This document shows positions 1-64,000 of a DNA stretch of 64,000 nucleotides, one piece after another. The stretch comes from Dugong dugon (taxonomy: Eukaryota; Chordata; Mammalia; Sirenia; Dugongidae). Positions within the stretch are counted from its first letter, which is position 1. The number at the start of each line of letters is the position of its first letter. Location of the stretch: NCBI GenBank assembly GCA_030035585.1, contig JASCZL010000099.1:16523-80522 (forward strand). The letters are read 5' to 3'. The notes under the pieces are model-generated. The model did not search any database, was not told the DNA's origin, and saw nothing but the letters and a program-made list of their open reading frames with translations. Position numbers and translations under genes: made by a program.

Positions 1-212
1 GGTCCCTCGCCTCTCTGCTAGCTTCTGTCTTTTCTATCTCACAAGAGATTGCCTGGCCATACAAGCTAACCCTGTAGATTGCCTCCGGACTCATTAACAT
101 AACTGCCTGGAATCCTGCCTCATTTCATCATAGAGGCTAGGATTTACGACACATCAGATAATGAGGACAGATCACAAATCCCGGAACAATCACACAACTC
201 TGGGAATCATGG
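1..212. repeat. Interspersed repeat, copy A (3' part, cut by window start)
   Basis: This is the end of the element described at 7097-7595. It stops at ...GGGAATCATGG, directly before the DUX fragment. Confidence 0.7.
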
Positions 213-215
213 GTC

Positions 216-373
216 CTTTGGATTCTCAGGCTCTTGAGAGGAGTCTTGGTGGCGCAATCTTGTCCGGACAGCGAGTTGATTATGGTCCTAGCCATATGCC
301 GGGTATGGGGGCCAGGAAGGAGTCTGAGTATCTGACAGCCTCTTTCCCACAGTCGGTTCTATTGGCTGCTGAT
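216..373 (-). pseudogene. Broken DUX fragment inside the repeat unit, unit 1
   Basis: Bases 216-373 align with bases 5815-5969 of the DUX coding sequence of the same unit, in the same orientation, at roughly 80% identity by eye and with one 3-base insertion. The stretch from GGGGCCAGGAAGGAG to CCCACAGTCGGTT is nearly unchanged. It corresponds to about residues 261-312 of the protein, in the Pro/Gln-rich middle and away from both homeodomains. Read in the DUX frame it meets a TAG (plus bases 288-290), so it is not coding. It sits where the interspersed repeat at 1-212 breaks off. Its divergence is far greater than that between units, so it is an old event fixed before the array was last homogenised. 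Confidence 0.85.
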
Positions 374-811
374 GTGCGCCTCCCCCGGGGCTCCTTTCCC
401 CCTGCACGGTGGGTTCCTTGCCCCTTTCCCTTCTGCCTATCCCCTTCCGCCCCGCGTGATGCTGGGTTGGGTGGAGGGCCCGCCCCTCCAGCCCACCTCC
501 TCTCTCTGTCAGCTCTCTCTGTCAGCTCTCTCTGTTTTCCTCGCGGCGGGTTCCTTCGCTTCACCATCGCGTGGCTGGCCTCCCCGGGTGTGCCCCTGCC
601 GGGGCCGCGTGTCCGTCCTTCCTCTGGCAGAGGGAAGTGAAATCGCGTGGCTCCCAGGGAGCGCGCTTGCGCCCGCAGCGGGGTCCTCTGCCCCACTCCC
701 CCACCCCCCACCCCCCGCCCGCCCGCCCTCCTCCACAGCATGGTCCTTGTCCCTGCATCCCCACGGTGCCGACAGGGAGCACAGCCCACGCCTTCCTCGC
801 TCTCCCTTCTC
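374..811. other. GC-rich spacer between the two repeat copies (all units)
   Basis: No gene is supported here. The stretch is CpG-rich and strongly pyrimidine-biased on the plus strand. It holds a short tandem of a 13-mer (CTCTCTCTGTCAG, about 2.5 copies near 500-533) and six C-runs at 691-728 that could form a G-quadruplex on the minus strand. Several overlapping open frames on both strands are composition effects. It recurs in the other units directly after the DUX fragment. The base at 631 is A in units 1, 2, 3, 6, 8 and 9 and C in units 4, 5 and 7. Confidence 0.6.
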
Positions 812-1105
812 CTGCCTCTGCCTCTTCTGCCTTGGTGCTCATAGGTCCCTCTCCTGTCTGCTAGCTACTCTTTTCTGTCTCAAAAGACATGCCCTGGGGA
901 TACAACCTAACCCTGTAGGTTGCCTCTTGCCTCCTTAACATAACTGCCTGGAATTCCACCTCATTAACATCACAGAGGCTAGGAGTGACAACCCAGAGTA
1001 TACTGAAGACAGATCACAAATCCCAGGACAACCACACAACACTGGGAATGAGGGCCAAGACAAGTTGACACACATTCTGGGGGGGACACATTTTAATCCA
1101 TGACA
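812..1105. repeat. Interspersed repeat, copy B (3' part), unit 1
   Basis: It begins at CTGCCTCTGCCTCTTCTG, matching the middle of copy A, and continues past where copy A is broken to ...GGGGGACACATTTTAATCCATGACA, the probable true 3' end of the element. Copies A and B are direct repeats in the same orientation and flank the DUX fragment plus the GC-rich spacer. Confidence 0.7.
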
Positions 1106-2243
1106 CCAGGCTATCTCAGAACAAACCCACCGACACCGAGTCCCTCTAGAAGGAAAGGACAAGAACAGCGCCCCTAGCCCGCCACCCAAGGACAGCGCAC
1201 CTGCAATAGGCAATAGGAGTCCCGCGGTGAGGGGCTGAGTGCCCATCAGTTGAGTGAGTTGGGTCTTCCCAGAGATTGGTTCCTTTAGGATGGCTTCCCT
1301 AGTCACAAGCCCATGTCCCCACCGCGACCAGCCAGCCTGCTGACCAAACGGAAGGATTCCGGTTCGCTTGGAGACAAGGTGGCTATCCCCAGGCGTCCAC
1401 CACGGTCAGGCTTTGTTTTGGTCTTCAGAGGCCGCCCAGTTCCAGCCCTGCCCCGTCTCTTCTGGGGTCTCTGGCTCTCCCTCTTCCTGTGACCTTGCAC
1501 CCACCGACTGCCTCATACCCTCCACTCCCCAGCCTCCCTCTCGTCGCTCTCCTTCCCTTTCTGCCAGCTCCATGCACGTCCACCCCTACCCCACGGCCAT
1601 CACCTCCAGCCCTGCCTTCACCAACACCCTCTCCCCAAAGGATTGGCAGACAACACGCCCGCATAGGGGACTCCTCAAGAGGGTTCCCCATGAAAATTCC
1701 ACAGGACCCAAGCGAGCAGGGCGGGTTTCCAGGGCAGTAGGCCACATCACTGGGCATGAGGGCTCCATTTCTGCAGGCGGCGAGAACCTCACCCATGGGG
1801 AGGGAAGGCAAAAGGTCCAGGCTGGGGGAGGGAGAGGCAAGTCGCTGAGGGAGGAATGGCTGGGCCTGGAGACTCAGAAGATGGCGACCAAGGCGGGACC
1901 GCCTCCACCCAGCTACTCTTAACGCTCCTCTGTCTCTCCATATGCTTCTTCGGTTTGTTTTTTTCCGGGGGGGTGGGGGGACTTTTACCAAGGGTCCAGT
2001 TCACATCGCCCAGTATCCCCGAGTTTCTTCTCCACGCTCCAGGAACGCTCTGAGGAGTTGAGAGACAGAGAGAACTCATCTAATAGAGGATTTTTCTTTT
2101 AAATATTCATTGTTGGCCACTGGATTTGGAATCATGTCAAAAGCGTGTGTTATAAAGTTAGAACTGCTGTCTAGGGTTTTCTTGGCTGTAATCTTGAATG
2201 GAAGCAGATAGCCACGATTCCCTGCTGCACCGCTCGGTACCTT
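1106..2243. other. Unrecognised intergenic segment (all units)
   Basis: I see no gene, RNA or known element. It holds a C-rich half (about 1430-1640), a purine-rich half (about 1790-1890) and a G7-T-G6 run at 1967-1980. Long open frames overlap on both strands and reflect low stop-codon density, not coding. Sites that vary between units lie at 1383, around 1636 and around 1731. Confidence 0.5.
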
Positions 2244-2661
2244 TCAACAGCCAGTCTTTTGATTAGTAGCCCACAGCAAACTGTTTGAAGCACCCGGGAA
2301 CCCGAATGTGAGAAGACATTCTCCCGAAACACTTGGAGTCAGGGCGCACAGAGACACATTGCCCCAAACATAGTCTTCTTTCAGGGAAGCGCGGGTCTCC
2401 TTCAGCCATCCTTCGTGCTTTTCCTTGTTGATTGTGCAGAACGCGCCGATATAGAGAGGGTCGGTCACGATTCTTTTCACAGAAATAGTGTCCCATTGCA
2501 CAATTTCTTCCGAAGCGAACGCCGAAGGTGTCCTTCTGGGCGAGCGATGGAGATCCGCTCTCGGCCAGAAAATCCCTTGGCACTGCTAGGTGTAGCTCGA
2601 TGAGCTGTTTGCCCAGGAGATGTTCTACTTTGCCAGAAAGGAGAGGAACAAAACAAAACAA
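2244..2661 (-). other. Possible decayed coding remnant, unrecognised (all units)
   Basis: On the minus strand two overlapping frames (about 2263-2661 and 2244-2501) read through without stops for 132 and 85 codons. Neither begins with ATG; both open at GTG. The residue mix looks more protein-like than the compositional frames elsewhere, and one frame seems to hand over to the other around 2510, as in a frameshifted pseudogene. I cannot assign a family. The sequence appears unchanged in all nine units. It could equally be chance. Confidence 0.2.
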
Positions 2662-2900
2662 AACACCTTATTTCTCACTAACAACAGAGAAGGAAAGGCG
2701 ATTCAAAGCTCAAAATACAGTGGCGTCACTAGGGTTCGTGTCACGCAGTGCAGGACTCATAGTGCCACCCACATCATCGACCTCCTCCCGTACCAGCCCA
2801 TACAGAATCCTTGGTATTGGTTTTTGTACCAATGTTAATGGTGAATCGTTATTCCTGTATATTGCTCATTCTTTTCTCTTGAATTACTACTTCATTCCCC

Positions 2901-2921
2901 AAAAAAAAAAAAAAAAAAAAA
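2901..2921 (+). repeat. Variable A-tract 1, unit 1 (21 A)
   Basis: A homopolymer after CCCC and before TTATTCAAC. It may be the tail of an old retroposed insertion on the plus strand, since the preceding 100 bp are AT-rich, but no element is recognised. Its length is the main cause of unit-length differences. Confidence 0.9.
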
Positions 2922-3339
2922 TTATTCAACTAGGTTCAGAAGTACTAATTGCCACGATACTGTACCGAAAACGCCAGAAACTTTGACCAAATCGGTGACT
3001 ACAAAAACTCGGCAGCCAAGAAAACAACAGCAGAGAAACCTCGAAACCAGAGGTTTCCACGCGTCACTGTAATTGAGGAATCACGACAGCTCTCCACAGA
3101 GGGCATTTTAAGGTTCCCAAAGTCAATTACCATAGCCTCTTTTAAACCTGTGTTTGGTTACATGGGTCCACGTAAGCCGGGCTTACGAAAAATGTTTTTG
3201 GAATTGTATCTACTTCAGGGATATCGTTTTAAAAATACTACATTTCTGCAGAAACACAGCACAGGAATGTCTGGACGGTCATTTTGGTGTGCCCCTCTGA
3301 AAGTGTCACCCGGTGCAGTCCGCATCGCCCCTACCCCGC
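2922..3339. other. AT-rich segment with a perfect dyad (all units)
   Basis: No gene is supported. A perfect inverted repeat, CGTAAGCC-G-GGCTTACG, lies at 3171-3187. Variable sites lie near 3005 (AAAAAC or AATAAC), near 3162 (GGGTCC, or GGATCC in units 5-9) and at 3277 (G or A, a CpG site). Confidence 0.5.
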
Positions 3340-3710
3340 AACCCGTGACGTCACTGGAGAACTAGGTAAAACCCCTTTAGGTAGTCACTTAGACGCGCGC
3401 GTATAACGGCGATACATCGGCTGTCTATCCGTTGAGGCTGTCGCCGACTCGTTCCTGGTGTCACCTCACTGCCCCTCCATTAGCAGCCGCTCAGGCTCAA
3501 GGTCCAGCGTGTTGCCGTTCCGGGGCCGCCAGATGGCGCGGCCTCTCCCGGAGAGCAGGGCCGGGTCCCCTCCATGCGCTGGGAGCTCTGGGCTTCGTGT
3601 TCCAGCCTCGCGCGTTCGGAATCCGCCTTGACCAGGCGAGCCAAGCCTGTGCCGAGGGCCATGACGTCGCGCGGACCTCGTCGCCTCCCCCTGATTTGCT
3701 CTTGAACACA
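3340..3710. promoter_or_regulatory. CpG-dense block with CRE and CTCF-like motif, unit 1
   Basis: CpG density rises sharply here. It contains a full CRE palindrome TGACGTCA (3347-3354), a half-related TGACGTCG (3662-3669), a self-complementary ACGCGCGCGT (3393-3402) and CCGCCAGATGGCGC (3526-3539). The last fits the CTCF core CCASYAGRKGGCRS with one mismatch at its third base. The block is about 1.7 kb past the end of the DUX gene. It could be an insulator or a separate, possibly antisense, promoter; both are inferences from motif content. Confidence 0.5.
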
Positions 3711-4916
3711 CTTATACTGCGGGAAGTCTTCTCCCTCCCCGCCACCGCCCCCCACCCCCACCCCGCTGCTCTCCATTAGCTGCTCTCTGGCCACCTAACA
3801 CCTGGTGACCCTGCTGCTCTCCGCTCCTCTCTCTTCGCCCACCTGTGTAGGGCCCGGAGGGCGTAGGGACTCTGAACTCTGAAGCGATCTGATCTTGAAG
3901 CCCAGACAGCCAAGTGTCCCCAGAACCCAAGCTCACGAGCCCGGACGGACCGAAGCAAATCAGTCTCGTGTGTCAAACATTCTTTCTTTCCTTCACTTGC
4001 GTTTTCTGGCTCGCTCCTTCCTTTAACTCCTTTGTTCCATTAAGAAACCTAGCCGACTGTCAAAGATCACAAGATTCGATGATGACACAGTTAGCTGGCG
4101 ACGCTGTGGGCAAATCGGCACTTTGATACGTGGCTGGCAAGCAATGAGGACACAGAAAGGGTCAGGCAGCCAGAGGAGGCGTGCCGGGACCCAACGCCTA
4201 GATGCCAGCAAAGGAGGAAAGCGGCAGGAGGAAGAAGGGTGGGCAGTGGGACCTCATTCCTATTTGGAAAGTGGGGGGAGTGCAGAGAGGTCTCGGATAC
4301 GGATAGGAGATTGGGGTTTCTAGGAACGGAGCTGAGGTTCCGGAGGGACATCTACTCGTTCTTTCATACTCGTTTGTGCTATTGAGATTTCTTTTCAGGC
4401 GCATGTTTTCCGTCTTTCAAAAGAAAAATGGATTTTCTTCTGTGTACGTTCCAACCATGTCTTTATTGTACCGAGGAAAACTCACATCCAGCTCGACAAT
4501 CGATATCAAGTTTGAGAGGCTACCACTTCCCACGACGATGGGAGGAGTCTCAGATGAGAGATGATAAGAAAGAGGTCTGAAGTCTACATACCATAAATCT
4601 ATTTTTCAGAAGATAGGAGAGCGTATGGAGAGACATGACCTAAATATACACATAACTCCAAAAAAGGTGCGACAACAATTACATCGCTACGCTTTGTTCA
4701 GTGACGGAATGGTGTTGCCCTAATGTCTTTCAGTCCGTTGTCTGCGGGTTGAAAGTGGCTCAAGGAAACCATATATTCACGGGGGGCGATCACTGTGGGG
4801 CATAATCTGTGGCATCATTCCTTCAGTGATGGATTGGGAAGAAACTCTCTTCCGGCCTCCAATTCGCACTCTCAAGGCTAAGGAAAAACGAACAAGCAAA
4901 CAGAAAAATAAAAAAC
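3711..4916. other. Segment 3' of DUX without a recognised gene (all units)
   Basis: It begins with C-runs (about 3733-3764, a minus-strand G-quadruplex candidate) and becomes AT-richer towards 4900. Apart from the AATAAA at 4462-4467 I find no gene, RNA or known element. If DUX transcripts run past 5437 they would cover this segment. On the minus strand a long T-rich tract (opposite about 4883-4929) ends in a TAG at 4878-4880, which resembles a splice acceptor, but I found no convincing donor for it. Confidence 0.5.
4462..4467 (-). terminator. Candidate DUX polyadenylation signal AATAAA, unit 1
   Basis: Plus-strand TTTATT reads AATAAA on the DUX sense strand, about 970 bp past the stop codon. 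It is the only canonical hexamer I noticed between the stop and this point. Confidence 0.4.
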
Positions 4917-4929
4917 AAAAAAAAAAAAA
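4917..4929 (+). repeat. A-tract 2, unit 1 (13 A)
   Basis: A homopolymer within an A-rich stretch. Lengths in units 2-9 are 13 (12298-12310), 13 (19676-19688), 12 (27055-27066), 13 (34439-34451), 14 (41825-41838), 13 (49211-49223), 14 (56597-56610) and 14 (63983-63996). Confidence 0.9.
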
Positions 4930-5436
4930 CCCTCATTTTCAGAAAATCCCGTTACGAGTAGAGAGAGCATCCCCTCATTCTCTACATGAACCTCATTTCC
5001 AGTTTGACTGCCCATCTCGTCAGAACGGAAAGGAGTAGAGGTGTGTGCAAGGTAGACCTATTTGCCTTGCTGGGGTTTGGTTACAATTCGTGAATTGCCC
5101 AGACTGCCAAGGAGGTGATGATCTCAAGGAGGAGTTTAGGTCAGTCATGAGAAGGCTATTGTTCATGTGGCTTCAGTGAATGGGTCCAGTGCCTGGTGTC
5201 CTTGGTGCCTCCGGTGGCAAGAGGGAGCCTCCAAAGGATCGGGCACCCAATGACTTGAAGACCCGGCGTCAGCGCTGTGACAATGTGCTAGATGGAAGTT
5301 TCCCAGAGTCTTATCCTTCTTCCTGCCTTGGTTTTGCTCCCGAACACCCCGTGTTGGTTGTTCGGCATCTCTTTAAATCATTCTGATGCCACCACAAGGC
5401 ATAGGATGCCTGAATGCGGGTCTGGACGCCCCAGTC
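4930..5436. other. Immediate 3' flank of DUX (all units)
   Basis: This is the probable start of the DUX 3' untranslated region on the minus strand. No second gene is seen. Units 6 and 8 have a C-to-A change here that makes a CACGTG E-box (42257-42262 and 57029-57034). Confidence 0.5.
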
Positions 5437-6750
5437 CTAAATCTGAAGCCCTGGTGAGTCTTGCAGCGCGTCCAGCAGAGCCTGGAAGTCAACGTCGCCG
5501 AGGGTGAGTTCGAGTTGCGGAGGGTCCTCCTCCAGTGGATCCACGTTCAGAAAGGCTTGGGCCTTTTCCTGAAAGTGTGTGGTGGAGAGGAGTTCATCTA
5601 AAAGGCTCATGGTTTCTAGACAGCCTTGGTCCAGTGGACGAGATGAGCCTTGCGCTGACCGTGCCGGCTCCTGCCACAGGTGTACCTCGGGGTGTGCGGG
5701 CTGCTGAATTGTCTCTTGGGTAGGTTCCCATCTGGCCGTCACGCCCTGGGCCACCCCACAGCCCCATTGCATGAAGGGAGCTGGGCCTTGCTGAGCCAGA
5801 GCCTGCCCCTGCTTCTTTGGATTCTCAGGCTGAGGAGAGTCTTGGCCGCGCAATCCTGCCGAGACACTGTGTTGGTTGGGATCCTGGCCATGTCCTGGGT
5901 ATTGGGGCCAGGAAGGAGCCTGAGTGTCTGACAGCCTCTTTCCCACAGTCGGTTCCGTTGGCAAGTGATTCAGGTCTGTCTCCGGGGCGTGAGAGGTCTC
6001 TGCTCTCTGCACATCCAGGGTGGGCTGGACCAGCATGACACCTGGTGCTTGACTGACACAGCCCTGGGTGGCACGCGAAGGAACAAAGGGTGTGGGGGAC
6101 TCCAGGAGAAGAGGCAGCATGGCTTGGTTGCCGCTGGAAGGATGGGAGCGTAGGCCATGATGAGACGTGCTCTGGACACAGGACAGGTTGCTTTGGTCAA
6201 GTGGAAGCGTCCCATGCGCTGGGCTGCCTGCCAAGAACTTCACCGGTGGTGCATTTGTGCCCTGCACTGGGTTCCGAGCCCTTCGGTTCTGAAACCATAT
6301 GTGAACTCGGGATTCTGGAAGGCCCGTTCGTCGAGCCAGTTCTTCCCTGGCCTCGATACCAGGGTATCGGTTCTTCTCAAAGGCTTCAACTAGGAGACTC
6401 CTTTGAGATCGGGTGATGAACGTGCGCTTTCGTCTGGCTGCTTTGGGGAAGTTTTCTGGAGACCAAGGCTGAGGCTCTTGCTCACCCTGGAACGGCTCTT
6501 CTTCGAAGGCACGCCCAGAGGCCGAGCTGCCCTTCTTCAGGTGACTTGCTCTGCGGTTTTGAAACCATATCTGAATGCGATCCTCCGGAATGCCAAGTTT
6601 TTGGGCGAGTTCTTCTCTGGTAGTGATACCAGGGTAGGGGTTCTGTTCAAAAGACGCCCACAGGACCTCTCTTTGACTCGGCTGCAAAACCAACCTCTTT
6701 CGTCGGCCTTGTGGTTTCTGAGAACGACTTGAAGTGCCGGTCAGATCCAT
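5437..6750 (-). CDS. DUX4: DUX4/DUXC-type double-homeobox transcription factor, unit 1
   Basis: This is a single uninterrupted frame of 437 codons ending in TAG. I start at the ATG at 6750, which has A at -3 and G at +4, a strong initiation context; the frame is open 8 codons further to a GTG, which I do not use. Homeodomain 1 spans about residues 15-74 and homeodomain 2 about 105-164, joined by a 30-residue acidic linker. Both recognition helices read IWFQNRRA and keep W48, F49, N51 and R53 of the homeodomain. A long Pro/Gln/Ser-rich middle follows. The C terminus has LLDELL (383-388) and DFQALLDAL (421-429), like the transactivation region of DUX4. Family role: a nuclear DNA-binding activator of zygotic-genome-activation genes, normally silenced in somatic cells. 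The lack of introns fits a DUX4-type retrocopy. Whether to name it DUX4 or DUXC depends on the species. Confidence 0.9.
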   Translation of the reverse strand: MDLTGTSSRSQKPQGRRKRLVLQPSQREVLWASFEQNPYPGITTREELAQKLGIPEDRIQIWFQNRRASHLKKGSSASGRAFEEEPFQGEQEPQPWSPENFPKAARRKRTFITRSQRSLLVEAFEKNRYPGIEAREELARRTGLPESRVHIWFQNRRARNPVQGTNAPPVKFLAGSPAHGTLPLDQSNLSCVQSTSHHGLRSHPSSGNQAMLPLLLESPTPFVPSRATQGCVSQAPGVMLVQPTLDVQRAETSHAPETDLNHLPTEPTVGKRLSDTQAPSWPQYPGHGQDPNQHSVSAGLRGQDSPQPENPKKQGQALAQQGPAPFMQWGCGVAQGVTARWEPTQETIQQPAHPEVHLWQEPARSAQGSSRPLDQGCLETMSLLDELLSTTHFQEKAQAFLNVDPLEEDPPQLELTLGDVDFQALLDALQDSPGLQI

Positions 6751-6816
6751 ACTGGCAAGTGACCTGGATTGCACGGAGACCAGCGGCCAAGCGAACAGCT
6801 CCCGGAAACAAAGGAC

Positions 6817-6867
6817 TCAGCGACACCCAGAAAGCTTTGCGGAGCAAAGGAAGGCGCCAAGGGCCAT
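6817..6867 (-). other. Short upstream ORF before DUX start (unit 1)
   Basis: An ATG at 6867 opens 16 codons and ends in TGA at 6817-6819, 66 bp before the DUX ATG and out of frame with it. It would be in the 5' leader only if transcription starts from the upstream TATA-like box (6899-6905); from the nearer one it would be left out. The same frame recurs upstream of every DUX copy. Confidence 0.35.
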
Positions 6868-6870
6868 TTC

Positions 6871-6905
6871 TTAAATACCTTCCCACTGGAGCCCTTCATT
6901 AAATA
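6871..6905 (-). promoter_or_regulatory. Paired TATA-like boxes of DUX promoter, unit 1
   Basis: Read on the minus strand there are two TATTTAA boxes, at 6899-6905 and 6871-6877, 28 bp apart and about 149 and 121 bp before the ATG. They are correctly placed and oriented to position transcription starts for the DUX gene. That they work as TATA boxes is inferred; no start-site data are available. Confidence 0.55.
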
Positions 6906-7096
6906 CCTAAGACCTTGGAGGACGGCGTGGAAGGGCGGGATGACTCCTAAGTGGAAGTGGAGATTTTATCAGGGGAGTGGGCAACGGTCATCCTATTAAG
7001 GTATTGCGTCAGAGGAATGCATCTCTAATGGAAGGATTTCCGGCACCTTGTGCGGTCGGCGGGAGCTGGGGAAGGAGACTGGCATTCCCAGGTGCC
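6906..7096. other. Upstream flank of the DUX promoter (all units)
   Basis: About 190 bp between the TATA-like boxes and the interspersed repeat. I see no further recognisable element. The equivalent of the base at 7003 is G in units 5 and 7 (36525, 51297) and A elsewhere. Confidence 0.5.
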
Positions 7097-7595
7097 TTAG
7101 TTATCTAGCGCTGCTCTAAACAGAACCAGCACAAGATCAGGACTAAAACAAACCCAAATGGATTCTTTCACACTCCAGGAAGGGGCGCGTTCACATTCGG
7201 GCCGCCAGCCCTGGTGGGGGGAAAGGGGGATGGGGAGGGGCGAGGGGGAGGCTTTCTCTGCCTGTCAGCTCTGGAGCAAGGTCCTTGTCATCACTCTTCT
7301 TCTGGTCTAGGAGCTTCTCAACGCAGGGACCCCGGGTCCAAAGTACAAGCTCTGCCTCTGCCTCTTCTGGCTTGGTGCCCATAGGTCCCTCGCCTCTCTG
7401 CTAGCTTCTGTCTTTTCTATCTCACAAGAGATTGCCTGGCCATACAAGCTAACCCTGTAGATTGCCTCCGGACTCATTAACATAACTGCCTGGAATCCTG
7501 CCTCATTTCATCATAGAGGCTAGGATTTACGACACATCAGATAATGAGGACAGATCACAAATCCCGGAACAATCACACAACTCTGGGAATCATGG
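7097..7595. repeat. Interspersed repeat, copy A, bridging units 1 and 2
   Basis: It runs from TTAGTTATCTAGCGCTGCTC through a G-rich stretch to ...CTGGGAATCATGG. Its last 240 bp are matched imperfectly by copy B at 8195-8488, so the family is recognisable from two diverged copies within the unit. Phrases such as TCCTTGTCATCA, CTGGTCTAGGAGCTTCTCA, CTCATTAACATAACTGCCTGGAAT and ATCATAGAGGCTAGGATTTAC recall, from memory, an ancient repeat family I associate with elephant-like genomes; I cannot name it with certainty. It contains a strong G-quadruplex motif at 7216-7248 (five runs of four or more G). Confidence 0.7.
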
Positions 7596-7598
7596 GTC

Positions 7599-7756
7599 CT
7601 TTGGATTCTCAGGCTCTTGAGAGGAGTCTTGGTGGCGCAATCTTGTCCGGACAGCGAGTTGATTATGGTCCTAGCCATATGCCGGGTATGGGGGCCAGGA
7701 AGGAGTCTGAGTATCTGACAGCCTCTTTCCCACAGTCGGTTCTATTGGCTGCTGAT
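7599..7756 (-). pseudogene. Broken DUX fragment, unit 2
   Basis: The same 158-bp fragment as at 216-373, with the same in-frame stop. Confidence 0.85.
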
Positions 7757-8194
7757 GTGCGCCTCCCCCGGGGCTCCTTTCCCCCTGCACGGTGGGTTCC
7801 TTGCCCCTTTCCCTTCTGCCTATCCCCTTCCGCCCCGCGTGATGCTGGGTTGGGTGGAGGGCCCGCCCCTCCAGCCCACCTCCTCTCTCTGTCAGCTCTC
7901 TCTGTCAGCTCTCTCTGTTTTCCTCGCGGCGGGTTCCTTCGCTTCACCATCGCGTGGCTGGCCTCCCCGGGTGTGCCCCTGCCGGGGCCGCGTGTCCGTC
8001 CTTCCTCTGGCAGAGGGAAGTGAAATCGCGTGGCTCCCAGGGAGCGCGCTTGCGCCCGCAGCGGGGTCCTCTGCCCCACTCCCCCACCCCCCACCCCCCG
8101 CCCGCCCGCCCTCCTCCACAGCATGGTCCTTGTCCCTGCATCCCCACGGTGCCGACAGGGAGCACAGCCCACGCCTTCCTCGCTCTCCCTTCTC

Positions 8195-8488
8195 CTGCCT
8201 CTGCCTCTTCTGCCTTGGTGCTCATAGGTCCCTCTCCTGTCTGCTAGCTACTCTTTTCTGTCTCAAAAGACATGCCCTGGGGATACAACCTAACCCTGTA
8301 GGTTGCCTCTTGCCTCCTTAACATAACTGCCTGGAATTCCACCTCATTAACATCACAGAGGCTAGGAGTGACAACCCAGAGTATACTGAAGACAGATCAC
8401 AAATCCCAGGACAACCACACAACACTGGGAATGAGGGCCAAGACAAGTTGACACACATTCTGGGGGGGACACATTTTAATCCATGACA
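8195..8488. repeat. Interspersed repeat, copy B, unit 2
   Basis: The same as 812-1105. Confidence 0.7.
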
Positions 8489-10283: not shown

Positions 10284-10302
10284 AAAAAAAAAAAAAAAAA
10301 AA
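10284..10302 (+). repeat. Variable A-tract 1, unit 2 (19 A)
   Basis: 19 A after CCCC. Confidence 0.9.
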
Positions 10303-10720
10303 TTATTCAACTAGGTTCAGAAGTACTAATTGCCACGATACTGTACCGAAAACGCCAGAAACTTTGACCAAATCGGTGACTACAATAACTCGGCAGCCAA
10401 GAAAACAACAGCAGAGAAACCTCGAAACCAGAGGTTTCCACGCGTCACTGTAATTGAGGAATCACGACAGCTCTCCACAGAGGGCATTTTAAGGTTCCCA
10501 AAGTCAATTACCATAGCCTCTTTTAAACCTGTGTTTGGTTACATGGGTCCACGTAAGCCGGGCTTACGAAAAATGTTTTTGGAATTGTATCTACTTCAGG
10601 GATATCGTTTTAAAAATACTACATTTCTGCAGAAACACAGCACAGGAATGTCTGGACAGTCATTTTGGTGTGCCCCTCTGAAAGTGTCACCCGGTGCAGT
10701 CCGCATCGCCCCTACCCCGC

Positions 10721-11091
10721 AACCCGTGACGTCACTGGAGAACTAGGTAAAACCCCTTTAGGTAGTCACTTAGACGCGCGCGTATAACGGCGATACATCG
10801 GCTGTCTATCCGTTGAGGCTGTCGCCGACTCGTTCCTGGTGTCACCTCACTGCCCCTCCATTAGCAGCCGCTCAGGCTCAAGGTCCAGCGTGTTGCCGTT
10901 CCGGGGCCGCCAGATGGCGCGGCCTCTCCCGGAGAGCAGGGCCGGGTCCCCTCCATGCGCTGGGAGCTCTGGGCTTCGTGTTCCAGCCTCGCGCGTTCGG
11001 AATCCGCCTTGACCAGGCGAGCCAAGCCTGTGCCGAGGGCCATGACGTCGCGCGGACCTCGTCGCCTCCCCCTGATTTGCTCTTGAACACA
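10721..11091. promoter_or_regulatory. CpG-dense block, unit 2
   Basis: The CRE is retained, and the CTCF-like motif is at 10907-10920. Confidence 0.5.
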
Positions 11092-11842: not shown

Positions 11843-11848
11843 TTTATT
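11843..11848 (-). terminator. Candidate polyadenylation signal, unit 2
   Basis: The AATAAA is retained on the minus strand, about 970 bp past the unit-2 stop. Confidence 0.4.
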
Positions 11849-20195: not shown

Positions 20196-21509
20196 CTAAA
20201 TCTGAAGCCCTGGTGAGTCTTGCAGCGCGTCCAGCAGAGCCTGGAAGTCAACGTCGCCGAGGGTGAGTTCGAGTTGCGGAGGGTCCTCCTCCAGTGGATC
20301 CATGTTCAGAAAGGCTTGGGCCTTTTCCTGAAAGTGTGTGGTGGAGAGGAGTTCATCTAAAAGGCTCATGGTTTCTAGACAGCCTTGGTCCAGTGGACGA
20401 GATGAGCCTTGCGCTGACCGTGCCGGCTCCTGCCACAGGTGTACCTCGGGGTGTGCGGGCTGCTGAATTGTCTCTTGGGTAGGTTCCCATCTGGCCGTCA
20501 CGCCCTGGGCCACCCCACAGCCCCATTGCATGAAGGGAGCTGGGCCTTGCTGAGCCAGAGCCTGCCCCTGCTTCTTTGGATTCTCAGGCTGAGGAGAGTC
20601 TTGGCCGCGCAATCCTGCCGAGACACTGTGTTGGTTGGGATCCTGGCCATGTCCTGGGTATTGGGGCCAGGAAGGAGCCTGAGTGTCTGACAGCCTCTTT
20701 CCCACAGTCGGTTCCGTTGGCAAGTGATTCAGGTCTGTCTCCGGGGCGTGAGAGGTCTCTGCTCTCTGCACATCCAGGGTGGGCTGGACCAGCATGACAC
20801 CTGGTGCTTGACTGACACAGCCCTGGGTGGCACGCGAAGGAACAAAGGGTGTGGGGGACTCCAGGAGAAGAGGCAGCATGGCTTGGTTGCCGCTGGAAGG
20901 ATGGGAGCGTAGGCCATGATGAGACGTGCTCTGGACACAGGACAGGTTGCTTTGGTCAAGTGGAAGCGTCCCATGCGCTGGGCTGCCTGCCAAGAACTTC
21001 ACCGGTGGTGCATTTGTGCCCTGCACTGGGTTCCGAGCCCTTCGGTTCTGAAACCATATGTGAACTCGGGATTCTGGAAGGCCCGTTCGTCGAGCCAGTT
21101 CTTCCCTGGCCTCGATACCAGGGTATCGGTTCTTCTCAAAGGCTTCAACTAGGAGACTCCTTTGAGATCGGGTGATGAACGTGCGCTTTCGTCTGGCTGC
21201 TTTGGGGAAGTTTTCTGGAGACCAAGGCTGAGGCTCTTGCTCACCCTGGAACGGCTCTTCTTCGAAGGCACGCCCAGAGGCCGAGCTGCCCTTCTTCAGG
21301 TGACTTGCTCTGCGGTTTTGAAACCATATCTGAATGCGATCCTCCGGAATGCCAAGTTTTTGGGCGAGTTCTTCTCTGGTAGTGATACCAGGGTAGGGGT
21401 TCTGTTCAAAAGACGCCCACAGGACCTCTCTTTGACTCGGCTGCAAAACCAACCTCTTTCGTCGGCCTTGTGGTTTCTGAGAACGACTTGAAGTGCCGGT
21501 CAGATCCAT
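20196..21509 (-). CDS. DUX4: DUX4/DUXC-type double-homeobox factor, unit 3 (V403M)
   Basis: An intact 437-codon copy. The only residue difference from unit 1 is Val403 to Met (T at 20303, a CpG site), shared with unit 4 and lying between LLDELL and DFQALLDAL. It is a conservative hydrophobic change in the C-terminal region. The homeodomains, linker and stop are identical to the other copies. Confidence 0.9.
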   Translation of the reverse strand: MDLTGTSSRSQKPQGRRKRLVLQPSQREVLWASFEQNPYPGITTREELAQKLGIPEDRIQIWFQNRRASHLKKGSSASGRAFEEEPFQGEQEPQPWSPENFPKAARRKRTFITRSQRSLLVEAFEKNRYPGIEAREELARRTGLPESRVHIWFQNRRARNPVQGTNAPPVKFLAGSPAHGTLPLDQSNLSCVQSTSHHGLRSHPSSGNQAMLPLLLESPTPFVPSRATQGCVSQAPGVMLVQPTLDVQRAETSHAPETDLNHLPTEPTVGKRLSDTQAPSWPQYPGHGQDPNQHSVSAGLRGQDSPQPENPKKQGQALAQQGPAPFMQWGCGVAQGVTARWEPTQETIQQPAHPEVHLWQEPARSAQGSSRPLDQGCLETMSLLDELLSTTHFQEKAQAFLNMDPLEEDPPQLELTLGDVDFQALLDALQDSPGLQI

Positions 21510-27573: not shown

Positions 27574-28887
27574 CTAAATCTGAAGCCCTGGTGAGTCTTG
27601 CAGCGCGTCCAGCAGAGCCTGGAAGTCAACGTCGCCGAGGGTGAGTTCGAGTTGCGGAGGGTCCTCCTCCAGTGGATCCATGTTCAGAAAGGCTTGGGCC
27701 TTTTCCTGAAAGTGTGTGGTGGAGAGGAGTTCATCTAAAAGGCTCATGGTTTCTAGACAGCCTTGGTCCAGTGGACGAGATGAGCCTTGCGCTGACCGTG
27801 CCGGCTCCTGCCACAGGTGTACCTCGGGGTGTGCGGGCTGCTGAATTGTCTCTTGGGTAGGTTCCCATCTGGCCGTCACGCCCTGGGCCACCCCACAGCC
27901 CCATTGCATGAAGGGAGCTGGGCCTTGCTGAGCCAGAGCCTGCCCCTGCTTCTTTGGATTCTCAGGCTGAGGAGAGTCTTGGCCGCGCAATCCTGCCGAG
28001 ACACTGTGTTGGTTGGGATCCTGGCCATGTCCTGGGTATTGGGGCCAGGAAGGAGCCTGAGTGTCTGACAGCCTCTTTCCCACAGTCGGTTCCGTTGGCA
28101 AGTGATTCAGGTCTGTCTCCGGGGCGTGAGAGGTCTCTGCTCTCTGCACATCCAGGGTGGGCTGGACCAGCATGACACCTGGTGCTTGACTGACACAGCC
28201 CTGGGTGGCACGCGAAGGAACAAAGGGTGTGGGGGACTCCAGGAGAAGAGGCAGCATGGCTTGGTTGCCGCTGGAAGGATGGGAGCGTAGGCCATGATGA
28301 GACGTGCTCTGGACACAGGACAGGTTGCTTTGGTCAAGTGGAAGCGTCCCATGCGCTGGGCTGCCTGCCAAGAACTTCACCGGTGGTGCATTTGTGCCCT
28401 GCACTGGGTTCCGAGCCCTTCGGTTCTGAAACCATATGTGAACTCGGGATTCTGGAAGGCCCGTTCGTCGAGCCAGTTCTTCCCTGGCCTCGATACCAGG
28501 GTATCGGTTCTTCTCAAAGGCTTCAACTAGGAGACTCCTTTGAGATCGGGTGATGAACGTGCGCTTTCGTCTGGCTGCTTTGGGGAAGTTTTCTGGAGAC
28601 CAAGGCTGAGGCTCTTGCTCACCCTGGAACGGCTCTTCTTCGAAGGCACGCCCAGAGGCCGAGCTGCCCTTCTTCAGGTGACTTGCTCTGCGGTTTTGAA
28701 ACCATATCTGAATGCGATCCTCCGGAATGCCAAGTTTTTGGGCGAGTTCTTCTCTGGTAGTGATACCAGGGTAGGGGTTCTGTTCAAAAGACGCCCACAG
28801 GACCTCTCTTTGACTCGGCTGCAAAACCAACCTCTTTCGTCGGCCTTGTGGTTTCTGAGAACGACTTGAAGTGCCGGTCAGATCCAT
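27574..28887 (-). CDS. DUX4: DUX4/DUXC-type double-homeobox factor, unit 4 (V403M)
   Basis: An intact 437-codon copy with the same protein as unit 3, including Met403 (T at 27681). Sharing this allele with the adjacent unit points to duplication or gene conversion between units 3 and 4. Confidence 0.9.
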   Translation of the reverse strand: MDLTGTSSRSQKPQGRRKRLVLQPSQREVLWASFEQNPYPGITTREELAQKLGIPEDRIQIWFQNRRASHLKKGSSASGRAFEEEPFQGEQEPQPWSPENFPKAARRKRTFITRSQRSLLVEAFEKNRYPGIEAREELARRTGLPESRVHIWFQNRRARNPVQGTNAPPVKFLAGSPAHGTLPLDQSNLSCVQSTSHHGLRSHPSSGNQAMLPLLLESPTPFVPSRATQGCVSQAPGVMLVQPTLDVQRAETSHAPETDLNHLPTEPTVGKRLSDTQAPSWPQYPGHGQDPNQHSVSAGLRGQDSPQPENPKKQGQALAQQGPAPFMQWGCGVAQGVTARWEPTQETIQQPAHPEVHLWQEPARSAQGSSRPLDQGCLETMSLLDELLSTTHFQEKAQAFLNMDPLEEDPPQLELTLGDVDFQALLDALQDSPGLQI

Positions 28888-29233: not shown

Positions 29234-29732
29234 TTAGTTATCTAGCGCTGCTCTAAACAGAAACAGCACAAGATCAGGACTAAAACAAACCCAAATGGAT
29301 TCTTTCACACTCCAGGAAGGGGCGCGTTCACATTCGGGCCGCCAGCCCTGGTGGGGGGAAAGGGGGATGGGGAGGGGCGAGGGGGAGGCTTTCTCTGCCT
29401 GTCAGCTCTGGAGCAAGGTCCTTGTCATCACTCTTCTTCTGGTCTAGGAGCTTCTCAACGCAGGGACCCCGGGTCCAAAGTACAAGCTCTGCCTCTGCCT
29501 CTTCTGGCTTGGTGCCCATAGGTCCCTCGCCTCTCTGCTAGCTTCTGTCTTTTCTATCTCACAAGAGATTGCCTGGCCATACAAGCTAACCCTGTAGATT
29601 GCCTCCGGACTCATTAACATAACTGCCTGGAATCCTGCCTCATTTCATCATAGAGGCTAGGATTTACGACACATCAGATAATGAGGACAGATCACAAATC
29701 CCGGAACAATCACACAACTCTGGGAATCATGG
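29234..29732. repeat. Interspersed repeat, copy A, units 4-5
   Basis: The same element with A at 29263. G-run at 29353-29385. Confidence 0.7.
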
Positions 29733-29735
29733 GTC

Positions 29736-29893
29736 CTTTGGATTCTCAGGCTCTTGAGAGGAGTCTTGGTGGCGCAATCTTGTCCGGACAGCGAGTTGAT
29801 TATGGTCCTAGCCATATGCCGGGTATGGGGGCCAGGAAGGAGTCTGAGTATCTGACAGCCTCTTTCCCACAGTCGGTTCTATTGGCTGCTGAT
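29736..29893 (-). pseudogene. Broken DUX fragment, unit 5
   Basis: The same 158-bp fragment with the same in-frame stop. Confidence 0.85.
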
Positions 29894-30331: not shown

Positions 30332-30625
30332 CTGCCTCTGCCTCTTCTGCCTTGGTGCTCATAGGTCCCTCTCCTGTCTGCTAGCTACTCTTTTCTGTCT
30401 CAAAAGACATGCCCTGGGGATACAACCTAACCCTGTAGGTTGCCTCTTGCCTCCTTAACATAACTGCCTGGAATTCCACCTCATTAACATCACAGAGGCT
30501 AGGAGTGACAACCCAGAGTATACTGAAGACAGATCACAAATCCCAGGACAACCACACAACACTGGGAATGAGGGCCAAGACAAGTTGACACACATTCTGG
30601 GGGGGACACATTTTAATCCATGACA
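30332..30625. repeat. Interspersed repeat, copy B, unit 5
   Basis: The same as 812-1105. Confidence 0.7.
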
Positions 30626-33983: not shown

Positions 33984-33989
33984 TTTATT
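33984..33989 (-). terminator. Candidate polyadenylation signal, unit 5
   Basis: The AATAAA is retained. Confidence 0.4.
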
Positions 33990-34958: not shown

Positions 34959-36272
34959 CTAAATCTGAAGCCCTGGTGAGTCTTGCAGCGCGTCCAGCAG
35001 AGCCTGGAAGTCAACGTCGCCGAGGGTGAGTTCGAGTTGCGGAGGGTCCTCCTCCAGTGGATCCACGTTCAGAAAGGCTTGGGCCTTTTCCTGAAAGTGT
35101 GTGGTGGAGAGGAGTTCATCTAAAAGGCTCATGGTTTCTAGACAGCCTTGGTCCAGTGGACGAGATGAGCCTTGCGCTGACCGTGCCGGCTCCTGCCACA
35201 GGTGTACCTCGGGGTGTGCGGGCTGCTGAATTGTCTCTTGGGTAGGTTCCCATCTGGCCGTCACGCCCTGGGCCACCCCACAGCCCCATTGCATGAAGGG
35301 AGCTGGGCCTTGCTGAGCCAGAGCCTGCCCCTGCTTCTTTGGATTCTCAGGCTGAGGAGAGTCTTGGCCGCGCAATCCTGCCGAGACACTGTGTTGGTTG
35401 GGATCCTGGCCATGTCCTGGGTATTGGGGCCAGGAAGGAGCCTGAGTGTCTGACAGCCTCTTTCCCACAGTCGGTTCCGTTGGCAAGTGATTCAGGTCTG
35501 TCTCCGGGGCGTGAGAGGTCTCTGCTCTCTGCACATCCAGGGTGGGCTGGACCAGCATGACACCTGGTGCTTGACTGACACAGCCCTGGGTGGCACGCGA
35601 AGGAACAAAGGGTGTGGGGGACTCCAGGAGAAGAGGCAGCATGGCTTGGTTGCCGCTGGAAGGATGGGAGCGTAGGCCATGATGAGACGTGCTCTGGACA
35701 CAGGACAGGTTGCTTTGGTCAAGTGGAAGCGTCCCATGCGCTGGGCTGCCTGCCAAGAACTTCACCGGTGGTGCATTTGTGCCCTGCACTGGGTTCCGAG
35801 CCCTTCGGTTCTGAAACCATATGTGAACTCGGGATTCTGGAAGGCCCGTTCGTCGAGCCAGTTCTTCCCTGGCCTCGATACCAGGGTATCGGTTCTTCTC
35901 AAAGGCTTCAACTAGGAGACTCCTTTGAGATCGGGTGATGAACGTGCGCTTTCGTCTGGCTGCTTTGGGGAAGTTTTCTGGAGACCAAGGCTGAGGCTCT
36001 TGCTCACCCTGGAACGGCTCTTCTTCGAAGGCACGCCCAGAGGCCGAGCTGCCCTTCTTCAGGTGACTTGCTCTGCGGTTTTGAAACCATATCTGAATGC
36101 GATCCTCCGGAATGCCAAGTTTTTGGGCGAGTTCTTCTCTGGTAGTGATACCAGGGTAGGGGTTCTGTTCAAAAGACGCCCACAGGACCTCTCTTTGACT
36201 CGGCTGCAAAACCAACCTCTTTCGTCGGCCTTGTGGTTTCTGAGAACGACTTGAAGTGCCGGTCAGATCCAT
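34959..36272 (-). CDS. DUX4: DUX4/DUXC-type double-homeobox factor, unit 5
   Basis: An intact 437-codon copy whose translation equals unit 1, although this unit belongs to the other sequence block of the array. The majority protein (Val403, Glu414) is thus found on both sides of the block boundary, so it is probably the ancestral form and M403 and K414 are derived. Confidence 0.9.
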   Translation of the reverse strand: MDLTGTSSRSQKPQGRRKRLVLQPSQREVLWASFEQNPYPGITTREELAQKLGIPEDRIQIWFQNRRASHLKKGSSASGRAFEEEPFQGEQEPQPWSPENFPKAARRKRTFITRSQRSLLVEAFEKNRYPGIEAREELARRTGLPESRVHIWFQNRRARNPVQGTNAPPVKFLAGSPAHGTLPLDQSNLSCVQSTSHHGLRSHPSSGNQAMLPLLLESPTPFVPSRATQGCVSQAPGVMLVQPTLDVQRAETSHAPETDLNHLPTEPTVGKRLSDTQAPSWPQYPGHGQDPNQHSVSAGLRGQDSPQPENPKKQGQALAQQGPAPFMQWGCGVAQGVTARWEPTQETIQQPAHPEVHLWQEPARSAQGSSRPLDQGCLETMSLLDELLSTTHFQEKAQAFLNVDPLEEDPPQLELTLGDVDFQALLDALQDSPGLQI

Positions 36273-61964: not shown

Positions 61965-61986
61965 AAAAAAAAAAAAAAAAAAAAAA
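61965..61986 (+). repeat. Variable A-tract 1, unit 9 (22 A)
   Basis: 22 A, followed by TTTATT (type-B flank). Confidence 0.9.
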
Positions 61987-62405
61987 TTTATTCAACTAGG
62001 TTCAGAAGTACTAATTGCCACGATACTGTACCGAAAACGCCAGAAACTTTGACCAAATCGGTGACTACAAAAACTCGGCAGCCAAGAAAACAACAGCAGA
62101 GAAACCTCGAAACCAGAGGTTTCCACGCGTCACTGTAATTGAGGAATCACGACAGCTCTCCACAGAGGGCATTTTAAGGTTCCCAAAGTCAATTACCATA
62201 GCCTCTTTTAAACCTGTGTTTGGTTACATGGATCCACGTAAGCCGGGCTTACGAAAAATGTTTTTGGAATTGTATCTACTTCAGGGATATCGTTTTAAAA
62301 ATACTACATTTCTGCAGAAACACAGCACAGGAATGTCTGGACGGTCATTTTGGTGTGCCCCTCTGCAAGTGTCACCCGGTGCAGTCCGCATCGCCCCTAC
62401 CCCGC

Positions 62406-62776
62406 AACCCGTGACGTCACTGGAGAACTAGGTAAAACCCCTTTAGGTAGTCACTTAGACGCGCGCGTATAACGGGGATACATCGGCTGTCTATCCGTTG
62501 AGGCTGTCGCCGACTCGTTCCTGGTGTCACCTCACTGCCCCTCCATTAGCAGCCGCTCAGGCTCAAGGTCCAGCGTGTTGCCGTTCCGCGGCCGCCAGAT
62601 GGCGCGGCCTCTCCCGGAGAGCAGGGCCGGGTCCCCTCCATGCGCTGGGAGCTCTGGGCTTCGTGTTCCAGCCTCGCGCGTTCGGAATCCGCCTTGACCA
62701 GGCGAGCCAAGCCTGTGCCGAGGGCCATGACGTCGCGCGGACCTCGTCGCCTCCCCCTGATTTGCTCTTGAACACA
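62406..62776. promoter_or_regulatory. CpG-dense block, unit 9
   Basis: Block-2 form; CTCF-like motif at 62592-62605. Confidence 0.5.
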
Positions 62777-63527
62777 CTTATACTGCGGGAAGTCTTCTCC
62801 CTCCCCGCCACCGCCCCCCACCCCCACCCCGCTGCTCTCCATTAGCTGCTCTCTGGCCACCTAACACCTGGTGACCCTGCTGCTCTCCGCTCCTCTCTCT
62901 TCGCCCACCTGTGTAGGGCCCGGAGGGCATAGGGACTCTGAACTCTGAAGCGATCTGATCTTGAAGCCCAGACAGCCAAGTGTCCCCAGAACCCAAGCTC
63001 ACGAGCCCGGACGGACCGAAGCAAATCAGTCTCGTGTGTCAAACATTCTTTCTTTCCTTCACTTGCGTTTTCTGGCTCGCTCCTTCCTTTAACTCCTTTG
63101 TTCCATTAAGAAACCTAGCCGACTGTCAAAGATCACAAGATTCGATGATGACACAGTTAGCTGGCGACGCTGTGGGCAAATCGGCACTTTGATACGTGGC
63201 TGGCAAGCAATGAGGACACAGAAAGGGTCAGGCAGCCAGAGGAGGCGTGCCGGGACCCAACGCCTAGATGCCAGCAAAGGAGGAAAGCGGCAGGAGGAAG
63301 AAGGGTGGGCAGTGGGACCTCATTCCTATTTGGAAAGTGGGGGGAGTGCAGAGAGGTCTCGGATAGGGATAGGAGATTGGGGTTTCTAGGAACGGAGCTG
63401 AGGTTCCGGAGGGACATCTACTCGTTCTTTCATACTCGTTTGTGCTATTGAGATTTCTTTTCAGGCGCATGTTTTCCGTCTTTCAAAAGAAAAATGGATT
63501 TTCTTCTGTGTACGTTCCAACCATGTC

Positions 63528-63533
63528 TTTATT
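63528..63533 (-). terminator. Candidate polyadenylation signal, unit 9
   Basis: The AATAAA is retained; the gene it would serve begins beyond the window. Confidence 0.4.
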
Positions 63534-64000
63534 GTACCGAGGAAAACTCACATCCAGCTCGACAATCGATATCAAGTTTGAGAGGCTACCACTTCCCACG
63601 ACGATGGGAGGAGTCTCAGATGAGAGATGATAAGAAAGAGGTCTGAAGTCTACATACCATAAATCTATTTTTCAGAAGATAGGAGAGCGTATGGAGAGAC
63701 ATGACCTAAATATACACATAACTCCAAAAAAGGTGCGACAACAATTACATCGCTACGCTTTGTTCAGTGACGGAATGGTGTTGCCCTAATGTCTTTCAGT
63801 CCGTTGTCTGCGGGTTGAAAGTGGCTCAAGGAAACCATATATTCACGGGGGGCGATCACTGTGGGGCATAATCTGTGGCATCATTCCTTCAGTGATGGAT
63901 TGGGAAGAAACTCTCTTCCGGCCTCCAATTCGCACTCTCAAGGCTAAGGAAAAACGAACAAGCAAACAGAAAAATAAAAAACAAAAAAAAAAAAAACCCT

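What the first reader, a model, noticed from the sequence alone, without database searches (positions are those of the whole stretch)
1..64000. DUX4/DUXC macrosatellite with 7.38-kb units and an intact gene in every unit
Eight of eight complete units keep an open 437-codon double-homeobox frame with start context, both homeodomains and the C-terminal activation motifs. The unit is more than twice the length of human D4Z4 and carries long non-coding segments that do not resemble it. Intact copies throughout suggest the array can express functional protein and is not a fossil.
Basis: partly seen in the sequence, partly recalled or inferred. Interest (0 to 1): 0.85.

Follow-up and report, generated by a model that had tools for sequence, protein, structure and literature searches.

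The report
Dugong DUX4 gene array beside rDNA
The window is the inside of a long row of nearly identical, intact copies of DUX4, a gene that in other mammals helps switch on the embryo's genome, most probably from the dugong, and one such row in this genome ends directly against ribosomal RNA gene repeats, a place that could help keep it silent.

Summary
All 8 complete units in the window keep an open, intronless 437-codon double-homeobox frame on the minus strand; seven whole units are 7378-7387 bp and 99.81-100% identical. The best solved-structure matches are human DUX4. The genome fits the dugong assembly mDugDug1.hap1 by size, scaffold count and N50. Intronless DUX4 arrays are already known in afrotherians, so the array itself is a new species' case of a known kind.

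New from the whole genome: (1) 80 of 80 scored type-A units and 16 of 16 scored units of a second array type, 86% identical, are open. (2) Between one unit of each type, none of 42 indel events falls in the frame, yet dN/dS is 0.7-1.0: the frame is kept open while the protein drifts. (3) No FRG1 match lies on the contig of the placed array. (4) That array (36 units, C12) passes, with no N at the junction, into ribosomal DNA spacer beside an rDNA cluster. Mouse Dux is silenced at the nucleolus (PMC8973846), so cis silencing becomes testable. The junction rests on one contig; the functional link is inference.

The parts
1..64000 (-). interior of a head-to-tail macrosatellite, unit 7378-7387 bp; part of contig C193 (80,522 bp, array at both contig ends)
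5437..6750 (-). DUX4-type ORF 1, 437 aa
12818..14131 (-). DUX4-type ORF 2, 437 aa (E to K near the C terminus)
20196..21509 (-). DUX4-type ORF 3, 437 aa (V to M near the C terminus)
27574..28887 (-). DUX4-type ORF 4, 437 aa (V to M near the C terminus)
34959..36272 (-). DUX4-type ORF 5, 437 aa
42346..43659 (-). DUX4-type ORF 6, 437 aa
49731..51044 (-). DUX4-type ORF 7, 437 aa
57118..58431 (-). DUX4-type ORF 8, 437 aa
36392..36416 (-). candidate core promoter of ORF 5 (GGGCTCCAGTGGGAAGGTATTTAAG, 120 bp before the start codon); the same in 8 of 8 units (6870, 14251, 21629, 29007, 36392, 43779, 51164, 58551) and in the one type-B unit aligned; promoter role inferred
33984..33989 (-). AATAAA 970 nt after the stop codon of ORF 5; at the matching place in the other units of the window, absent from the one type-B unit examined
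29736..29886 (-). decayed 151-bp duplicate of ORF nucleotides 789-936 (82% identical), about 850 bp upstream of the start codon of ORF 4; nine copies in the window (216, 7599, 14980, 22358, 29736, 37121, 44508, 51893, 59280)
30332..30569 (-). first of two related ~240-bp segments of the unit (83-84% identical; probably an interspersed repeat)
   Evidence: coordinates computed from positions 5704-5941 of window unit 5
29489..29727 (-). second of the two related ~240-bp segments
   Evidence: coordinates computed from positions 6546-6784 of window unit 5

Best explanation
The window is the interior of a DUX4-type macrosatellite of a sirenian, most probably the dugong. Shown: each 7.38-kb unit carries one intronless double-homeobox gene; copies within the type-A arrays are nearly identical; a second, diverged array type keeps the same frame open; and one type-A array of 36 units on contig C12 ends inside a unit and continues, with no N at the junction, as ribosomal intergenic spacer, beside a cluster of rDNA repeats that point the other way. 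Inferred: the genes came from a retrocopied DUXC transcript, as in other afrotherians. Each unit is transcribed from its own promoter just upstream of the start codon. The protein binds DNA with two homeodomains, recruits co-activators with its C-terminal LLDELL/LLDAL motifs, and fires in the cleavage-stage embryo. Elsewhere the array is silenced as repeat heterochromatin, and where it adjoins rDNA it should lie at the nucleolar border, so that its silencing may follow nucleolar maturation in cis.
For: Frames and units. Human DUX4 as best solved match over both homeodomains, E 2e-45. Genome: G000, 3,158,355,915 bp, 196 contigs, C9 = 140,654,138 bp, against dugong mDugDug1.hap1 with 3.159 Gbp, 198 scaffolds, scaffold N50 140.7 Mbp, 24 chromosomes (PMC10936554, Results section read). 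Open copies: 96 of 96 scored matches cover 1-437 without a stop (C12 36, C165 18, C169 16, C193 10, type B 16; 96 of 544 candidates scored). The four type-A contigs have room for about as many units as were found. A against B: 0 of 42 indel events in the frame, 9.1 expected, Poisson P about 1e-4; 0.065% of 20,000 neutral simulations stay free of stops. rDNA: pRNA match 19 kb from the junction; a promoter stretch with 40 scored copies (of 80 candidates), 26 on C12, 25 of these in + orientation; full 5.8S, 143 bits, on C12. Junction: letters 1-229 of the query match DUX units, letters 228-651 match rDNA spacer at two other places in full and at six in part, and one place matches all of it (40 of 3550 candidates scored). 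C12 gene spacing is even, 35 of 35 distances 7377-7393 bp. DUX loci silenced at nucleoli in mouse and D4Z4 proposed as nucleolus-associated: PMC8973846, passages read.
Against: No expression data. dN/dS between types is 0.70 (NG86) or about 1.04 (YN00), and amino-acid changes are not depleted (83 seen, 84.4 expected for the same 125 base changes), so protein-level constraint is weak over this interval; only one unit of each type was compared. The high identity continues some 340 bp past the stop codon, so gene conversion between the types could explain part of the slower ORF. The rDNA junction occurs in a single contig; the interior of the C12 array was not read base by base; parts of the C12 rDNA read N; 18S and 28S were not sought; no second haplotype was available. 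The window's own contig C193 is not placed.
Confidence: 0.8

Rival explanations
1. The array is a homogenised repeat whose open frames are kept only by recent amplification and gene conversion; the protein is no longer under selection.
For: Units in the window are 99.8-100% identical, which alone would give equal frames. dN/dS between array types is 0.7-1.0 and changes are spread evenly over codon positions (41, 40, 44).
Against: Two types 86% apart both keep the whole frame, with no indel and no stop where neutrality would almost always break it. Both C-terminal LxxL motifs, a purine at -3 of the start codon and the core promoter block are kept.
Confidence: 0.12
2. The DUX/rDNA junction is an assembly artefact: two high-copy repeats joined by a chimeric path.
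For: Only one place in the genome matches the junction end to end. Both partners are high-copy arrays, and part of the neighbouring rDNA reads N.
Against: No N lies in the 9.5 kb read from the last array unit across the junction into the spacer (L013), and the 36 genes before it are evenly spaced. The spacer side is ordinary rDNA spacer that also occurs elsewhere on C12 and on C178 and C179, and 25 of 26 scored C12 promoter copies run the same way. The assembly is HiFi-based (PMC10936554).
Confidence: 0.2
3. The array is an intron-containing DUXC array, as in cow, dog or sloth.
For: DUXC also forms tandem arrays and has the same C-terminal domain (PMC3004920).
Against: DUXC homeoboxes are split by introns at fixed positions; here both homeoboxes and the C-terminal domain lie in one frame.
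Confidence: 0.03

Closest known systems
Intronless DUX4 arrays of Afrotheria (elephant, hyrax, tenrec; Leidenroth et al. 2012, known here only through passages of PMC11359688 and PMC8877164)
   Same: intronless double-homeobox gene in tandem arrays, same superorder
   Different: a sirenian; two array types; junction of one array with rDNA. I could not read the 2012 paper, so I do not know whether unit length or location differ there
Human D4Z4/DUX4 (4q35)
   Same: one intronless DUX4 gene per unit, both homeodomains, C-terminal LLDELL and LLxxL motifs
   Different: unit 7.38 kb against 3.3 kb; 437 against 424 residues (the latter inferred from the aa339-424 construct in PMC10195082), with a linker between homeodomains about 15 residues longer and a short tail after the last motif; no FRG1 match on the placed contig; AATAAA inside the type-A unit
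Mouse Dux array (chromosome 10)
   Same: intronless arrayed DUXC-family gene; nucleolar silencing shown in mouse (PMC8973846, passages)
   Different: in mouse the locus is brought to the nucleolus; here one array adjoins rDNA in sequence; no triplicated C-terminal domain (mouse triplication: PMC10195082)
Human acrocentric D4Z4-like repeats
   Same: DUX4-like repeats on chromosome arms that also carry rDNA (PMC12963445, passages)
   Different: in the passages shown I saw no statement that repeats abut rDNA directly; here intact genes do
DUXC arrays of Laurasiatheria and Xenarthra
   Same: tandem organisation, C-terminal domain
   Different: DUXC has introns in both homeoboxes

Membership tests
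DUX4-type (DUXC family, intronless) macrosatellite | two closely spaced PRD-class homeodomains | tested here: met
   PF00046 twice, E 4.8e-38; human DUX4 best, E 2e-45 over residues 13-164
DUX4-type (DUXC family, intronless) macrosatellite | C-terminal domain with two (L)LxxL(L) motifs | tested here: met
   LLDELL and LLDAL (type A) or LLDVL (type B); definition from PMC10195082, passages
DUX4-type (DUXC family, intronless) macrosatellite | no intron in the coding frame | tested here: met
   one 437-codon frame through both homeoboxes and C terminus, 8 of 8; no RNA data
DUX4-type (DUXC family, intronless) macrosatellite | gene copies in a tandem array of kb-long units | tested here: met
DUX4-type (DUXC family, intronless) macrosatellite | origin by retrotransposition of DUXC | tested here: inconclusive
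   introns absent, which fits; no poly-A tail or target-site duplication was sought; DUXC itself was not reached in the genome because array copies fill the scored candidates
DUX4-type (DUXC family, intronless) macrosatellite | cleavage-stage expression and target activation | not testable with these tools
   no RNA data
Human D4Z4 (orthologous locus) | linkage to FRG1 | tested here: not met
   five FRG1 matches (8 of 8 candidates scored): three pieces in gene order on C19:78.32 Mb, two on C21, none on C12 where the placed array lies; C193 itself is unplaced; FRG2 was not searched
Human D4Z4 (orthologous locus) | 3.3-kb unit | tested here: not met
   7378-7387 bp
Human D4Z4 (orthologous locus) | no polyadenylation signal inside the unit | tested here: inconclusive
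   AATAAA 970 nt after the stop in type A, none in the one type-B unit examined; use of the signal unknown
DUXC (intron-containing) | introns inside both homeoboxes | tested here: not met
   frame uninterrupted; definition PMC3004920

The most novel reading that the evidence does not exclude
In the dugong (and perhaps other paenungulates) a working DUX4 array is built into the edge of the nucleolar organiser, so that its off-switch is hard-wired in cis: the array is free while embryonic nucleoli are immature and is shut when rRNA synthesis and nucleoli mature. The lineage would then have fixed in the DNA the nucleolar tether that mouse Dux reaches by nuclear positioning.
Probability: 0.22. Interest if true: 0.85.

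Novelty: new variant of a known kind. Interest (0 to 1): 0.55.

Why it matters
DUX4-family genes help start the embryonic genome programme and are harmful when they escape silencing (FSHD). They recur in tandem arrays in the lineages described (primates, rodents, Laurasiatheria, Xenarthra, Afrotheria), and why they do is called an unresolved question in PMC3004920. A sirenian genome with two diverged array types, all scored copies open, allows selection on DUX4 to be measured. The direct junction of one array with ribosomal DNA gives a natural test of whether nucleolar attachment is how DUX arrays are silenced.

Tried and rejected
Species by solved globins: a myoglobin and an alpha-globin exon read from the genome match many mammalian chains, but the best matches shown are not exact; the assembly statistics decided it. 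Afrotherian origin from the RTE/SINE-like repeat in the type-B flank is recalled from memory, not tested.

The pRNA family search of the genome found nothing because 60 of 185,828 candidates were scored; it is no negative. The 5.8S search scored 39 of 75,919 candidates and matched 2 places, C12 and C69; its control rang in 9 of 14 prokaryotes, 5 over the cut-off, so the family alone is not specific, but the C12 match is full length at 143 bits.

The family search with PF00046 scored 150 of 572 candidates and the protein search 96 of 544. Array copies fill them, so DUXA, DUXB and DUXC in this genome remain unseen and copy counts are lower bounds. C174 also carries type-B array sequence that was not scored.

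Binding sites of the human DUX4 type (TAAYYNAATCA) in the unit: none in one type-A and one type-B unit (motif recalled). tRNAs: none in window 1-16000. An Rfam hit to Vax2os1 in both units of window 1-16000 is below the gathering score (29.5 against 55 bits, E 2e-6) and was not pursued.

Left flank of the C12 array, beyond a 200-N gap: of the frames printed, five were scanned; three next to the gap and one satellite frame gave no Pfam family, one LINE-like frame gave Exo_endo_phos. An 11-bp satellite TCTATTCCACA lies there. No anchor gene was recognised in the 24 kb read; the other frames were not scanned. A placement of type B was sought by its flank (40 of 3408 candidates scored): four long matches, 100% on C33 and C174, 92% at C8:0.77 Mb, 85% at C22:2.59 Mb; the other 36 rows match only a piece of about 130-170 bp. 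The C8 sequence read next to it shows no match to array or flank, so type B stays unplaced.
Full report
What is there. The window is one array from end to end. Eight of eight complete frames of 437 codons lie on the minus strand. The seven whole units are 7378-7387 bp and 99.81-100% identical; units 5 and 7 are identical, as are 6 and 8. Both homeodomains are found (PF00046, E 4.8e-38) and the best solved-structure matches are human DUX4, E 2e-45 over residues 13-164. The linker between the homeodomains is about 15 residues longer than in human DUX4. The C terminus has LLDELL and LLDAL, the pair of motifs that characterises the DUXC family and is needed for DUX4 activity (PMC10195082, passages read). 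Start context is TTGCCAGTATGG in all eight.

Whose genome. The window lies at C193:16523-80522 of a genome of 3,158,355,915 bp in 196 contigs; contig C9 has 140,654,138 bp. The dugong assembly mDugDug1.hap1 has 3.159 Gbp in 198 scaffolds with scaffold N50 140.7 Mbp and 24 chromosomes (PMC10936554, Results section; its Table 2 prints another N50). I take this as dugong, about 95% sure. Globin exons did not decide the species. Afrotherian DUX4 arrays are known: reviews name elephant, hyrax and tenrec (PMC11359688, passages; PMC8877164, passages). The primary paper is not held. A search for papers with both 'dugong' and 'DUX4' gave none.

How many copies, and are they intact. The protein search scored 96 of 544 candidates; all 96 cover residues 1-437 with no stop: C12 36, C165 18, C169 16, C193 10 (type A, 98-100% identical protein) and 16 on C33, C49 and C104 (type B, 81%). 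Best candidates are scored first, so broken copies could lie among the unscored. For type A this is answered in part by length: the C12 array (264.6 kb), C165 (132.0 kb), C169 (121.5 kb) and C193 (80.5 kb) have room for about as many complete units as the 80 found. For type B the count is a lower bound: of eight C49 units, four were scored, one more was read whole in L022 and three were seen only as open homeodomain frames; C174 carries further type-B sequence. In the pieces fetched, a script that asked only for frames of at least 300 codons with WFQN found 16 frames with nine distinct proteins, all of 437 residues.

Selection. I compared one type-A unit (window unit 5) with one type-B unit (C33). 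They are 86.1% identical over 7234 aligned sites. In the frame 125 of 1311 sites differ, against 873 of 5904 outside (14.8%). Of 42 indel events none falls in the frame; 9.1 are expected, Poisson P about 1e-4. Of 20,000 neutral simulations 0.065% kept the frame free of stops. Against a strong reading: changes fall evenly on codon positions (41, 40, 44), dN/dS is 0.70 by NG86 and about 1.04 by YN00, and amino-acid changes are not depleted for the number of base changes, over all (83 seen, 84.4 expected) or in any of the four regions tested. Homeodomain 2 and the C-terminal domain change least in bases (5.5% and 5.8%; homeodomain 1 7.8%, the middle 11.9%). High identity runs on about 340 bp past the stop codon, so conversion between the types may have slowed the frame. 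The fair statement is that the frame has been kept open through about 15% neutral divergence while the protein drifts fast. Homeodomain 1 has Q at position 50 in type A and H in type B, a position known to set DNA preference (recalled).

Anatomy of the unit. A block of 25 bases with GGTATTTAAG, 120 bp before the start codon, is the same in all eight units and in the type-B unit aligned and is my candidate core promoter. The type-A unit has one AATAAA 970 nt after the stop, the type-B unit none; three further AATAAA occur elsewhere in some units of the window. In human D4Z4 the signal lies outside the array (PMC3004920), so type A might finish transcripts inside each unit; this is untested. About 850 bp before each start codon lies a decayed 151-bp duplicate of the frame, 82% identical, found also in type B, so it probably predates the split of the types. 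Beside it lie two related segments of about 240 bp.

Where the arrays lie. The FRG1 family search scored 8 of 8 candidates and gave five matches: three pieces in gene order on C19:78.32 Mb and two overlapping pieces on C21 that look like a broken processed copy; each of the five aligned stretches holds at least one stop, which on C19 may be intron edges. None is on C12, where the placed DUX array lies at 71,679,552-71,944,177. The human D4Z4 neighbourhood is thus not shared by that array. The left end of the C12 array meets a 200-N gap, then an 11-bp satellite and LINE-like sequence. The inside of the array was not fetched beyond its ends; its 36 genes are evenly spaced, 35 of 35 distances 7377-7393 bp. 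The right end stops inside a unit, 646 bp before the start codon of the last gene, and goes on without N for 5.4 kb into very GC-rich DNA with long CCT runs. That DNA is rDNA spacer. A pRNA match, the conserved RNA at rDNA promoters, lies 19 kb on, and again in a locus from contig C179. A 1153-bp promoter stretch has 40 scored copies (of 80 candidates), 26 on C12 between 71.96 and 73.60 Mb, 25 of these in + orientation; of 25 neighbour distances 14 are 18.0-19.7 kb and five are 36-38 kb. A complete 5.8S gene lies at C12:73,510,502 in the same orientation. The junction query of 651 bases matches end to end at one place; letters 1-229 match DUX units of C12 (97%) and C169 (99%), letters 228-651 match spacer in full on C12 (98%) and C178 (96%) and in part at six more places on C12 and C179 (40 of 3550 candidates scored). 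Array genes and rDNA are transcribed away from each other. Part of the rDNA reads N, and I could not tell gaps from withheld stretches. The 18S and 28S genes were not sought. The window's contig C193 is array at both ends, so its own flanks are unknown; C12 pieces are 98.0-99.6% identical to window unit 5, so C193 may be a piece of that array, an allele, or a second locus.

How it most likely works. The family reading is firm: a DUX4-type transcription factor in an intronless array. That it is expressed in cleavage embryos and then silenced is inferred from mouse Dux and human DUX4. In mouse, Dux loci are silenced at the nucleolar border and move away within 4 h when Pol I is inhibited; the authors also note that human D4Z4 has been proposed to be nucleolus-associated (PMC8973846, passages; also PMC11065130, passages). 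A DUX array joined to rDNA could hardly avoid the nucleolar border wherever that rDNA cluster is active. I therefore think cis silencing by the organiser likely enough to test, but it is not shown. The two could also sit together merely because heterochromatic repeats gather at such sites.

Novelty. The array itself is a new species' case of a known kind. The direct junction with rDNA was not described in what I saw: the searches 'Dux, nucleolus, perinucleolar, rDNA' (8 papers), 'D4Z4, acrocentric, rDNA, DUX4' (12 papers) and 'DUX4, nucleolar organizer, macrosatellite' (3 papers). I saw passages of four of these (PMC8973846, PMC12771815, PMC12963445, PMC11065130), and none of the passages reports such a junction; the others I saw only as listings. 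The 2012 paper on DUX macrosatellites could not be read.

Noticed in passing
C12:71.96-73.60 Mb (L015, L041): The rDNA promoter copies are commonly only 18-20 kb apart (14 of 25 neighbour distances), short for a mammalian rDNA repeat (human about 43 kb, recalled), with a long CCT-rich spacer; worth a check with reads. One scored promoter copy at 73.10 Mb runs the other way.
   Followed up: partly
L013:4177-4178 (C12:71,944,176-71,944,177): Junction of DUX unit and rDNA spacer; the DUX side is 99% like five listed units of C169 but 97% like the 26 listed C12 units (capped list).
   Followed up: partly
C33 (L018-L020), C49, C104, C174 (L043): Second DUX array type, 86% identical units, in unplaced contigs; C33 and C174 share the same array end and flank (99.7% over 2.5 kb), and the flank has a 92% copy 0.77 Mb from the start of C8.
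   Followed up: partly
type-B ORF residue 64 (L019): Homeodomain 1 position 50 is H instead of Q, which may change the site bound.
   Followed up: no
window 9500-10000, minus strand: A stretch that reads like a decayed protein-coding insert (broken frames with an open piece of over 100 residues); its origin was not identified.
   Followed up: partly
C21:23,084,128-23,084,689 (L029, L030): FRG1-like copy with stops that looks like a processed pseudogene, apart from the exon-like pieces on C19.
   Followed up: no
L011:38-2342 (C12, left of the array beyond the gap): Satellite of 11-bp units TCTATTCCACA, about 200 copies, 63% matches.
   Followed up: no
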